From positions 818,501 through 882,500 of the forward strand of contig JAKVNF010000003.1 of NCBI GenBank assembly GCA_022483465.1: a DNA stretch of 64,000 bases, in the 5' to 3' direction. The notes beneath the pieces were generated by a model that saw only the letters and a program-made list of their open reading frames with translations, had not been told where the DNA came from and made no database searches. The stretch is from Lachnospiraceae bacterium (GTDB lineage: Bacteria > Bacillota > Clostridia > Lachnospirales > Lachnospiraceae). The position numbers were made by a program, and so were the translations under genes. Of this stretch, positions 19,400 to 22,669 are shown one piece after another. The number at the start of each line of letters is the position of its first letter. Position 1 is the stretch's first letter.

Positions 19400-19668
19400 A
19401 TGTCAGTTGTCGGCGGCATTATGGTACCGCATCCGCCCCTCATCCTGCCGGAAGTCGGCAGGGGAGAGGAAAAGTGCATTGAAACGACCAGGAAGGCCTA
19501 TGAGAAGGCCGCGGAGTTTGTCCGCGAGCTTGCGCCGGAGACGATTGTCCTCTCCTCCCCGCACAGCATCATGTACGCGGACTACCTGCACATCAGCCCG
19601 GGGGCGGGGACCAGCGGCGACATGGGCCGGTTCCGGGCGGGACAGGTGCGGCTTTCGCGGGAGTCTCA
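19400..19668 (+). pseudogene. 5' part of a fused MEMO-AMMECR1 gene, split by the IscB element
   Basis: Encodes the N-terminal 89-90 residues of a MEMO domain (VPHPPLILPEVGRGE, SSPHSIMYADY, GDMGRFRAGQVRLS), a fold related to class III extradiol dioxygenases with metal-binding histidines in the PHPPL and SPH motifs. GGAGAAAAG precedes the ATG. After 19668 the frame enters the mobile element and meets TAA at 19670-19672. Joining 19668 directly to 21538 gives ...RESHYDEPLAK..., which is the expected continuous family sequence and yields a 466-residue MEMO-AMMECR1 protein. The gene is therefore intact except for the insertion. Confidence 0.92.
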
Positions 19669-20090
19669 CTAACCCCACGGCAAGCCGTGGGGGTTGTGTG
19701 GCAACACAGCCCCATCGGCCTAACGTGAGGACTGCAGCACCATCGCAGTCCTGAGTGAGTAGCCTCACGCCTGTCCAAAAACCTTCGGATTGCGGATGGG
19801 CTACGTTGTCAGCAAATTCGGCAGATCAGTTCCGGCTTGTCTGCTCGTGAACACAGGCACCAGTGGATGCTCTCACAAGTCCACTGCTCTGCGGTGTGTC
19901 ACTAAACATTTCTGAGGGTAGGAGGAGTGTGATACACAACAAACTGCTGACAACATTGGCGATGTGGACCCGCCGAACGGGGCTTCTTCCTCCGGGAAGG
20001 AGCCTCCTGTAGGCAGAACCCCGTGTATGCCTTCCCTGAGGAGACACAGCACGGGAAGCCGTAAGGCACCGTAACGATTGTTTGATTTTC
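19653..20090 (+). ncRNA. Predicted omega RNA (HEARO RNA) of IscB, with guide at its 5' end
   Basis: The 440 bases between the element's left end and iscB contain no gene but many nested helices: CCCCACGG/CCGTGGGG (19673-19692), GGACTGC/GCAGTCC (19729-19751) inside CGTGA/TCACG (19724-19769), CAGTGGA/TCCACTG (19861-19886), ACGGGG/CCCCGT (19977-20024) enclosing TTCC-TCCG-GGAA, and CTTCCC/GGGAAG (20031-20058). It is known that IscB works with a structured RNA encoded just upstream (HEARO, renamed omega RNA) whose 5' end reads into flanking DNA as guide. The last 16 flanking bases, 19653-19668, would be that guide. Exact 5' and 3' ends are inferred. Confidence 0.8.
19673..19692 (+). repeat. Left subterminal hairpin of the IscB element
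   Basis: Perfect 8-bp stem with loop CAAG, four bases inside the left edge. It would also be the first helix of the omega RNA scaffold. Confidence 0.85.
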
Positions 20091-20108
20091 AGAAAGGAGG
20101 CATCAGTT

Positions 20109-21479
20109 ATGCTGACCTATGTACTGGCTGCAGACGGCTCACCGCTGATGCCGACCTACAACATCAAAAAGGTGAGACAGATGCTCAAAGGCGGCAGAGC
20201 AGTCATTGCAGGCCACAAGCCGGGATTTACAATCCGGCTGACCTACGCTCTGCCGGATCAGAAAACGCCGCATACGCAGAAGGTCGAACTCTGCGAGGAT
20301 ACCGGCTATCAGCATATTGGTGTCTCCGTAAAGAGCGCAAAGCATGAGTTTGTCCATCTGCAGGTCGATACACTTGCAGATGAGAAGCAGCATCACGATG
20401 CACAGAGACGGTACCGCAAGAGCAGACGTGGCCGTCTTCGGTATCGTGAAGCGAGGTTCGACAATCGCACGCACTCCAAGAAGCCCGGATGGCTTGCACC
20501 CTCACTTCAGCATAAAGCGGATATCCATGTGCGTCTTGTATCCACGTTCCAAAAGGTACTGCCGATTCGTGATGTATACCTTGAAGTGGGGACATTCGAC
20601 ACACAGGTTCTCGAGGCAAAGGAAAAGGGCCTGCCAATTCCGGAAGGATCAGACTATCAGCATGGAGTCCGTTACAGCATTGCTACGCTTCGTGAAGCGG
20701 TATTTTATCGTGACGGCTACAAATGCCAATGCTGCGGTAAGGGGATCGAAGATGGACGGATTCTGCGTGTGCACCATGTTGGTTACTGGAAAACACCCTC
20801 CGATCATACAGACCGGTTGGGCAACCTGATTACGGTCTGCACGAAATGCCATACGGCGGCAAACCACAAAAAAAGTGGCAAACTATATGGCTGGAAGCCG
20901 AAGATGAAACCTCTGACTGGCGCAGCGTTTATGAACACCGTGCGGTGGAAAATTGTGCAGGCTGTCAAAGACTTGGATTCTGGGTTGACTGTGCATACCA
21001 CGTATGGAGCATATACAAAGCTGTCACGTCGGGATCACTCCCTTGCCAAGACGCATGCAAATGATGCCTATTGTATGGGAGCGTTTCAGCCGGTGCACAG
21101 AGCGGCGGAACAGCTTCTGAAAAAGAGACGCCGCAATAATCGCGTTTTATCGAAGTTTTATGACGCGAAGTATATTGATATCGGGGATGGTGTCAAAAAG
21201 TCCGGATCAGATCTGTCCTGTGGCAGAACAAACCGTTCAGAGCCTCGAAATGGGAAAAAGAACTTTCGGATCTTTCGTGGCAAAAAGGTAAGCAAAGGAC
21301 GTATCGCCGTTCGAAAGCAGCGATATCCGATTCAGCCGGGAACACAGGTAATGTATAAAAAGCATACCTATGTTGCAGTTGGAACACACAACAACGGCAC
21401 AGCGGTTGTACTGAATTCAGGCAAAAGCGTATCTGTCAGTAAGCTGCGGATATTGCATCATGCCGGAGCTTTTATTTGA
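20109..21479 (+). CDS. iscB: IscB RNA-guided nuclease (OMEGA system)
   Basis: IscB is the compact ancestor of Cas9 and cuts DNA guided by an omega RNA. The 456-residue protein shows the full layout: N-terminal PLMP domain (SPLMPT, residues 11-16), RuvC-I with D64 in CEDTGYQHIGVSV, arginine-rich bridge helix (residues 100-120, RRYRKSRRGRLRYREAR), RuvC-II with E159 in VYLEVGTFD, an HNH domain with C206-xx-C209, H222-H223, N239 and C244-xx-C247, RuvC-III with H316 and D319 in KTHANDAYCMG, and a C-terminal target-recognition part ending in a short beta domain. All expected catalytic residues are present. ATG 20109 is chosen over upstream starts because AGAAAGGAGG is 8 bases before it and it places PLMP normally. 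No transposase accompanies it. Very likely functional on sequence grounds. Confidence 0.93.
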   Translation: MLTYVLAADGSPLMPTYNIKKVRQMLKGGRAVIAGHKPGFTIRLTYALPDQKTPHTQKVELCEDTGYQHIGVSVKSAKHEFVHLQVDTLADEKQHHDAQRRYRKSRRGRLRYREARFDNRTHSKKPGWLAPSLQHKADIHVRLVSTFQKVLPIRDVYLEVGTFDTQVLEAKEKGLPIPEGSDYQHGVRYSIATLREAVFYRDGYKCQCCGKGIEDGRILRVHHVGYWKTPSDHTDRLGNLITVCTKCHTAANHKKSGKLYGWKPKMKPLTGAAFMNTVRWKIVQAVKDLDSGLTVHTTYGAYTKLSRRDHSLAKTHANDAYCMGAFQPVHRAAEQLLKKRRRNNRVLSKFYDAKYIDIGDGVKKSGSDLSCGRTNRSEPRNGKKNFRIFRGKKVSKGRIAVRKQRYPIQPGTQVMYKKHTYVAVGTHNNGTAVVLNSGKSVSVSKLRILHHAGAFI

Positions 21480-21499
21480 GAAAGGGGGACGGCGCTCCT

Positions 21500-21519
21500 C
21501 CCCGCTGCAAGCGGCGGGG
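21500..21519 (+). repeat. Right subterminal hairpin of the IscB element
   Basis: Stem CCCCGCTG/CGGCGGGG (one G-T pair) with loop CAAG, 18 bases before the right edge. It mirrors the left hairpin in stem length and loop. Confidence 0.85.
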
Positions 21520-21537
21520 TTTCCGCGCCTGTATTCA

Positions 21538-22669
21538 TTATGACGAGCCTCTTGCAAAGAGGATCGCAGATCTCTCTGAAAAGGCGGATCTGCCCGCCGG
21601 CTTTCTCGGCGAGCGGGACCCCTCCCTTGACCACGGGACGCTGATCCCGCTGTATTTCATCCTGCAGAAGTACACCGACTTTCGCCTGGTGCGCCTTGGC
21701 ATCTCCGGCATCTCCCTGGCGGACCACTACCGGATCGGCATGCTGATCCAGCAGGCCGCTAAGGAGCTGAACCGCCGGGTGGTCTATGTCGCCTCCGGCG
21801 ATCTCTCCCACAAGCTCAAGGCGTCCGGCCCCTACGGCTTTGCCAAGGAGGGCCCGGAGTATGACAAGCGGATCATGCAGGACTGCGGAAGCGGCAGCTT
21901 CGGGAACCTTCTCACCTACGATCCCGTCTTTCTGGACAAGGCGGCCGAGTGCGGCCACCGCTCCTTTGTCCTGATGGCCGGCGCCCTGGACGGCCTCTCC
22001 GTGGAGGCAGCAGAGCTCTCCCACCAGGATGTCACCGGCGTCGGGTACGGGGTCTGCACCTTTCGCGTGACGGGAGAGGACCCGAGCCGGCACTTTCTTG
22101 CGCAGTACGAGAAGAACGAGCGGGATGCGCTGGCGGCAAAGCGGGCGGGGGAGGATCCTCTGGTCGCCCTCGCGAGAAAAACCATCGAGCAGTTCGTGAC
22201 AGACCGCACGGTGCCGGACGAAAAGGATCCTACGCTCTCCCTGCCGGAGGAGCTCCTGCACACCCGGGCGGGCGCCTTTGTCTCCCTGCACGAGGCGGGA
22301 GAGCTGCGGGGCTGCATCGGGACGATCCTTCCCGTGCGGAAAAACCTGGCCCAGGAGATCATCGAGAACGCGGTGAGCGCTGCCACCAGGGATCCCCGGT
22401 TTTCGCCGGTCCGGAAAGCGGAGCTCCCGTACCTGGAGATCAGCGTGGATGTGCTGGGAGAACCCGAGGACATCCCCGATGCGGGCGCGCTGGATGTTCG
22501 GCGCTACGGCGTCATTGTGGCAAAGGGCAGGAAGCGGGGCCTGCTGCTTCCGGATCTTCCCGGCGTCGACACGGTGGAAGAGCAGATCCGCATTGCAAAG
22601 AAAAAGGCCGGCATCCCGGAGGACGAGGCGGTACAGTTGCAGCGCTTCGAGGTAGTCCGGCACACGTGA
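21538..22669 (+). pseudogene. 3' part of the fused MEMO-AMMECR1 gene
   Basis: Continues the MEMO domain (YDEPLAKRIADLSEKADL, YVASGDLSHKLK, VLMAGALDGL) and then an AMMECR1 domain (LARKTIEQFV, LRGCIGTILP, AATRDPRF). Together with the radical SAM gene that follows 30 bases later this is the AmmeMemoRadiSam set, here with the first two parts fused. The frame is open back into the element to TTG 21476, which overlaps the iscB stop, so an N-terminally truncated product (AMMECR1 plus most of MEMO, lacking the first metal ligands) could in principle be made. The AMMECR1 half is undamaged. Confidence 0.92.

What the first reader, a model, noticed from the sequence alone, without database searches (positions are those of the whole stretch)
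19669..21537. IscB (OMEGA) element inserted in an AmmeMemoRadiSam gene, with exact-excision scar readable
Seen: iscB with all RuvC and HNH residues, CAAG-loop hairpins at both ends, TCA at both edges, and a host gene whose frame (..RLSRESH-YDEPLAK..) is exactly restored if 1,869 bp are removed. Known: IscB is the RNA-guided nuclease ancestral to Cas9 and is carried by IS200/IS605-like elements. Inference: this is a recent, possibly active element without its own transposase, and the fused MEMO-AMMECR1 protein has been lost by its insertion.
Basis: partly seen in the sequence, partly recalled or inferred. Interest (0 to 1): 0.92.

Follow-up and report, generated by a model that had tools for sequence, protein, structure and literature searches.

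The report
Cas9-ancestor jumping gene in MEMO gene
A mobile DNA element carrying IscB, the RNA-guided DNA cutter related to the ancestor of Cas9, sits in a bacterial gene; it is a known kind of element, its exact insertion point needed a small correction, and its copies seem to land unusually often just in front of the start codons of genes.

Summary
The finding is real, but its edges and its "scar" need correcting. The window holds a complete HEARO/omega-RNA plus iscB element without its own transposase, inserted in a MEMO(LigB)-AMMECR1 gene beside a radical-SAM gene. The element is 19665-21539 (1,875 bp), not 19669-21537. CTCAC is identical in 10 of 10 left ends in the genome, lies in the first helix of the Rfam HEARO model, and flanks differ before it. 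The junction reads RLSRE|YDEPLAK. 13 of 13 right ends are followed by ATGA. Six of seven full-length iscB copies are open with all catalytic residues; dS 0.07-0.17, pooled dN/dS 0.155: selected, not evidently recent. The genome has 38 Y1-transposase matches; neither end of the element lies beside one. New here: copies favour translation starts (5 of 10, or 4 of 10 strictly, vs 41 of 520 ATGA sites; p=0.0005 or 0.006), with a weaker parallel signal in 170 other HEARO sites (32 of 170 vs 9.4%). Verdict: new member of a known kind.

The parts
19665..21539 (+). Whole IscB/HEARO (ISC-type) element, 1,875 bp, no tnpA
   Evidence: 10 of 10 left ends identical from C19665 on, at most 7 of 10 in any of the 30 columns before it; right end before ATGA; empty sites in relatives
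19645..19664 (+). Host DNA expected to be copied as the 5' guide of the omega RNA (about 16-20 nt)
   Evidence: Inference from the known layout, guide 5' of the scaffold (PMC9640706, passages); flanks differ from copy to copy
19665..19974 (+). HEARO / omega RNA scaffold, left end of the element
   Evidence: RF02033, 92.3 bits, model 1-211 of 211
19673..19692 (+). Left CAAG-loop hairpin
   Evidence: sequence
20109..21479 (+). iscB, 456 aa, PLMP, RuvC and HNH motifs with catalytic residues present
   Evidence: NF040563 265.6 bits; Pfam RRXRR and HNH; matches IscB chains in the PDB; residues
21491..21529 (+). Right-end outer stem GGCGC..GCGCC around the CAAG-loop hairpin 21500-21519
   Evidence: sequence; predicted fold
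21540..21543 (+). Target tetranucleotide ATGA, presumed TAM
   Evidence: ATGA follows 13 of 13 right ends in this genome
19400..19664 (+). Host gene, 5' part: MEMO/LigB N-terminal part
   Evidence: Pfam LigB 33.1 bits, profile 3-62 of 269
21540..22669 (+). Host gene, 3' part: rest of LigB/MEMO plus AMMECR1
   Evidence: Pfam LigB profile 92-268, AMMECR1 158.5 bits; TIGR04335
22700..23548 (+). AmmeMemoRadiSam radical SAM enzyme, next gene
   Evidence: TIGR04337 240.3 bits, cut-off 220

Best explanation
A nonautonomous ISC-type transposon of the IS200/IS605 superfamily carrying an OMEGA system. A Y1 transposase made elsewhere would move it as single-stranded DNA and insert it directly 5' of ATGA without target duplication (the site and the lack of duplication are shown, the transposase is inferred). 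Transcription from the host flank through the left end would give an omega RNA whose 5' guide is the last 16-20 nt of host sequence; IscB would then cut an unoccupied allele that has this sequence followed by ATGA, so that repair from the occupied copy restores the element (inferred from published IscB and TnpB work). The insertion split the only MEMO-AMMECR1 gene found in this genome (shown).
For: Family and RNA matches; sharp left end in 10 copies, ATGA after 13 of 13 right ends; CTCAC pairs within helix 1 of the RNA model; uninterrupted MEMO genes in relatives fit the corrected ends; catalytic residues in 7 of 7 full-length copies, 6 of 7 without a stop; pooled dN/dS 0.155. This guide has 7 and 3 mismatches in 20 to the same site of the two nearest relatives, the second of which lacks ATGA, so it fits its own species' empty allele best. 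IsrB, a relative, cut targets with TTGA and ATGA TAMs (PMC9581776, passages).
Against: No transposase with matching ends was found, so mobilisation is unproven. The IscBs whose TAMs I read have other ones (NNRR, NTAAA; passages). There are no expression or cleavage data. No genome of the same species with an empty allele was seen. The HEARO score is below the curated cut-off in the genome-wide scan.
Confidence: 0.9

Rival explanations
1. Immobile relic: the family no longer moves, copies decay, and iscB persists by chance or as a domesticated nuclease.
For: No matching transposase found; broken copies: two interrupted by 1,214-bp insertions (one typed as IS1595 family), one by about 260 bp, one with an internal stop, remnants without a left end and one right-end-only remnant.
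Against: Six of seven full-length copies are open with every catalytic residue, and pooled dN/dS is 0.155, so the protein was under selection while the copies diverged.
Confidence: 0.25
2. A seamless intervening element that is removed from RNA, as IStrons are, so that the host gene still works.
For: The reading frame of the host gene is restored by exact removal, and the element carries a large structured RNA.
Against: HEARO is the only Rfam family at gathering threshold in the window, no intron family; frame restoration is expected for any insertion without target duplication; about half of the copies lie before start codons, where no splicing would be needed.
Confidence: 0.03
3. The start-codon preference, if real, is only survivorship: insertions occur at any ATGA, and those just 5' of a start codon are lost less often.
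For: At least four of ten copies lie inside genes, so a start codon is not required. RTGA is itself a start codon plus A, and the excess in other HEARO elements is modest.
Against: Nothing direct; among the ten copies no site in noncoding DNA away from a start was recognised, with one site unresolved. Numbers are small.
Confidence: 0.6

Closest known systems
ISC transposons / IscB OMEGA systems (OgeuIscB, OrufIscB)
   Same: PLMP, RuvC and HNH motifs, omega RNA upstream of iscB, no tnpA in the element, insertion beside a short fixed motif without target duplication
   Different: 456 aa, a distant match to OgeuIscB (94.6 bits); presumed TAM ATGA instead of NNRR or NTAAA (passages)
HEARO RNA (RF02033) and HEARO nucleases (PMC9755519)
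   Same: RNA family match; only a few HEARO nucleases lie with a TnpA gene (passage)
   Different: left end reads CTCACTAACCCC where other HEARO elements read GTCAACTACCCC; the left-end pattern was in this genome only among 392 genomes sampled from the order, with three further copies in two genomes of the genus
IsrB (PMC9581776)
   Same: NTGA-type TAM, ATGA accepted (passages)
   Different: IsrB nicks the non-target strand and has an HNH linker in place of HNH (passages); this protein has HNH

Membership tests
IscB | Match to the curated IscB model | tested here: met
   NF040563 265.6 bits vs cut-off 175
IscB | RuvC and HNH catalytic residues and PLMP motif | tested here: met
IscB | RNA-guided double-strand cleavage | not testable with these tools
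   needs protein and RNA
HEARO / omega RNA | Match to RF02033 over the whole model at the element's left end | tested here: met
   92.3 bits, model 1-211; 75.9 bits, under the cut-off of 83, in the genome-wide scan
ISC transposon (IS200/IS605 superfamily) | Fixed ends with subterminal hairpins, insertion next to a fixed 4-bp site, no target duplication (definition recalled from Kapitonov 2016, not read here) | tested here: met
ISC transposon (IS200/IS605 superfamily) | Mobilised by a Y1 transposase acting on its ends | tested here: inconclusive
   38 Y1_Tnp matches in the genome; 26 of these loci compared, none shares the ends; right ends are 7 kb or more from any of the 38
IStron / self-splicing element | Group I intron in the element | tested here: not met
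   HEARO is the only Rfam match at gathering threshold in the window
AmmeMemoRadiSam system (host genes) | AMMECR1, MEMO/LigB and radical SAM genes together | tested here: met
   TIGR04335 139.8 (cut-off 99), TIGR04337 240.3 (cut-off 220), Pfam LigB; TIGR04336 only 21.4, below its cut-off 26, on the 3' part alone

The most novel reading that the evidence does not exclude
HEARO/ISC elements exploit translation starts: their target and presumed TAM, RTGA, is a start codon plus A, so insertions accumulate between Shine-Dalgarno and ATG; the guide then consists of ribosome-binding-site sequence, and the right-end hairpin may bridge the displaced Shine-Dalgarno to the start codon so that the gene stays translatable, as the right-end remnant before an ilvB-like gene suggests.
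Probability: 0.27. Interest if true: 0.6.

Novelty: new member of a known kind. Interest (0 to 1): 0.4.

Why it matters
It gives one genome with ten left-ended copies of one IscB family, sharp ends, intact and broken nucleases, and uninterrupted sites in relatives, enough to read the target rule (ATGA) and so predict the TAM of an untested IscB. If the start-codon preference holds, it would help explain how these elements spread with little harm and why an RTGA target was kept.

Tried and rejected

Shared ends with resident IS200/IS605 elements: ten tnpA loci were searched with both ends; three multi-copy groups and two single loci were inspected. That covers 26 of the 38 Y1_Tnp matches; six more were fetched but not analysed, six not fetched. 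Ends differ (for example TTTAA..GTTCAC). One weak resemblance: read on the bottom strand, the right end begins AATGAATACAGG, and one IS200-like group begins AATGAAACAG. Too short to claim.

Same left end elsewhere: 0 of 391 other genomes sampled from the order and 0 viral contigs, so the wider comparison used the GTCAACTACCCC left end.

Sense orientation: in the wide set there is no significant bias (24 sense vs 18 antisense at 100 codons, p=0.44; 17 vs 9 at 150, p=0.17; 158 sites). Not claimed.

Start-codon tests that came out weak: one of the five own-genome cases, C1:780k, has an IS1595-type end 158 bases into the right flank, so only about 52 of its 89 codons are native; without it the count is 4 of 10, p=0.006. 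With open frames of 85 codons or more and no Shine-Dalgarno requirement, 5 of 10 vs 154 of 520, p=0.14. In the wide set, control windows 15, 25, 35 and 44 nt further upstream gave 9, 23, 16 and 17 of 170 against 32 at the site. The background includes RTGA sites inside the elements. Right ends could be placed by a regular expression, made, in only 14 of 90 wide sites, three of them on one contig and at least one (L167) possibly a chance match: 3 of 14 have Shine-Dalgarno plus ORF (background 3.4%, p=0.01), 8 of 14 a 90-codon ORF (background 19%, p=0.002) and 6 of 14 also a short upstream frame (background 6.2%, p=1e-4). In relatives, the located starts of peptidase T genes are not ATGA (four loci with an ATG start), so the target there is not conserved.

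Literature: searches listed, by title and start of abstract, no paper on IscB or HEARO insertions at start codons. Kapitonov 2016 and Weinberg 2009 are not held and may have noted it.

Changed after checking: the C1:780k case, the list of tnpA loci, gene names (now), and the probability of the novel reading from 0.3 to 0.27.

Full report
What is there. The window lies at G000:C3:818501-882500 of a 4.3-Mb, four-contig genome. At 20109-21479 is an open reading frame of 456 aa that matches the curated IscB model at 265.6 bits (cut-off 175) and Pfam RRXRR and HNH; in the PDB its best matches are HfmIscB (6e-29) and other IscB chains, OgeuIscB at 94.6 bits. Counterparts of the RuvC residues D61, E193, H340, D343 and of H247 in HNH of OgeuIscB (PMC9640706, passages) are D64, E159, H316, D319 and the HH pair 222/223, by motif and by the alignments. 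Upstream, 19665-19974 matches HEARO RNA RF02033 over the whole model (92.3 bits); the genome-wide scan scored it 75.9, under the cut-off of 83.

Ends. Ten copies in this genome have a left end. Every column from CTCAC onward is identical in 10 of 10 (15 columns), while the 30 columns before it reach at most 7 of 10. CTCAC pairs with GTGAG in the first helix of the HEARO model. A search with the right end found 13 distinct places: the ten copies, two remnants without a left end, and one right-end-only remnant. All 13 are followed by ATGA; the base before ATGA is T in 11, C in one and G in the right-end-only remnant, while the last base of the left flank varies. The element is therefore 19665-21539 and the target N|ATGA. 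The terminus itself varies slightly (TGTATTCATT, TGTATTATT, TTAATTCATT, TGTATTCATC).

Empty sites. A protein query made of the two host halves matched 34 of 61 genomes, this one included. In the two nearest, DNA aligns through the corrected joint, one without a gap over 492 bases, the other with its nearest gap 8 bases past the joint. The insertion has split the gene whose two halves are its only matches in this genome.

Age and state of the family. IscB has 19 matches in this genome: seven full-length copies (one with an internal TAA), two copies interrupted one base apart by 1,214-bp insertions (transposase of one typed as IS1595 family), one interrupted by about 260 bp, remnants, and a diverged second IscB lying in two frames. 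Among the seven full-length copies pairwise dS is 0.07-0.17 and pooled dN/dS 0.155. The nuclease has been selected while copies diverged; that this insertion is recent is not shown.

Transposase. [quoted passage not shown] The genome has 38 Y1_Tnp matches. The element's right end is at 13 places and its left-end pattern at 10; the right ends are at least 7 kb from every tnpA match, and 26 of the 38 loci were compared without finding the same ends. Which transposase moves it is open.

Where it lands. Of the ten left-ended copies, four lie inside genes with the frame nAT-GAn open on both sides: this MEMO gene, an AAA_14/DUF4143 gene, a GGDEF gene and an unnamed gene. Five lie directly before ATG-A of an open frame, with a Shine-Dalgarno 3-11 nt upstream once the element is left out: an M20 peptidase (peptidase T by my reading), a glycosyl hydrolase family 36 gene, a DUF308 gene, an unnamed gene and one gene that an IS1595-type end cuts after about 52 codons. 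For these five, that the two flanks belong together rests on spacing alone. The tenth (C3:401k) has a Shine-Dalgarno in the left flank, a hexapeptide transferase fragment at the right and no Pfam match at the left; it may be rearranged. By the criterion, 5 of 10 are starts against 41 of 520 ATGA sites of the window, p=5e-4; dropping the cut gene, 4 of 10, p=0.006. A right-end-only remnant lies before an open thiamine-pyrophosphate enzyme gene (ilvB-like); in two of seven relative loci, those whose start I located, this gene has a Shine-Dalgarno directly before ATGA. In 170 distinct left flanks of other HEARO elements (176 matches, four dropped for short flanks, two as duplicates; one has Ns near the site), a Shine-Dalgarno lies 3-11 nt before the element in 32, against 9.4% of 20,727 RTGA sites of the same DNA, p=1e-4.

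How it probably works. Shown: fixed ends, target, intact nuclease and RNA match, selection on the protein, split host gene. Inferred: single-stranded excision and insertion by a Y1 transposase in trans; a guide made of the last 16-20 host bases; cleavage of empty alleles followed by ATGA; recopying by repair. The guide of this copy has 7 and 3 mismatches in 20 to the homologous site of the two nearest relatives, the second of which lacks ATGA, so it should act best on empty alleles of its own species.

Known or new. Known: IscB, HEARO, nonautonomous ISC elements, insertion beside a short motif (the ATGA/GTGA site of HEARO is recalled from Weinberg 2009, and ISC elements from Kapitonov 2016; neither is held). 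New here: the corrected junction, the ATGA-flanked family in this genome, and the excess at translation starts, which no title or abstract start listed by searches reports. Of papers I saw passages of PMC9755519, PMC9581776, PMC13180657 and PMC9640706 only.

Noticed in passing
L008 2650-3863 and L009 (C3:648k, C1:1025k): Two iscB copies are interrupted by 1,214-bp insertions one base apart, with AATGGGAA-like repeats beside them, one typed as IS1595 family: perhaps two independent hits of a preferred site. GGCGTTAG ends also appear inside several tnpA copies.
   Followed up: partly
L011 2100-2359 (C3:368k): An insert of about 260 bp with inverted ends (GGCCCTTTCA..) and an 8-bp repeat GTATTTTA sits in an iscB copy; it looks like a small nonautonomous element.
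   Followed up: no
L082 (C2:611728-611781): Right-end-only remnant between a Shine-Dalgarno and the start codon of an ilvB-like gene; the stem GGCGC..GCGCC would hold the two close together and the Shine-Dalgarno is predicted mostly unpaired. In the window copy the matching GGGGG is only about half unpaired.
   Followed up: partly
L006 (C3:401k): Flanks of this copy may not belong to one gene, and part of its right hairpin is inverted: perhaps a rearranged copy.
   Followed up: partly
L320 1544-3053 (C1:1307-1309k): A second, diverged IscB (30 and 40% identical in two pieces) lies in two overlapping frames, so probably frameshifted.
   Followed up: partly
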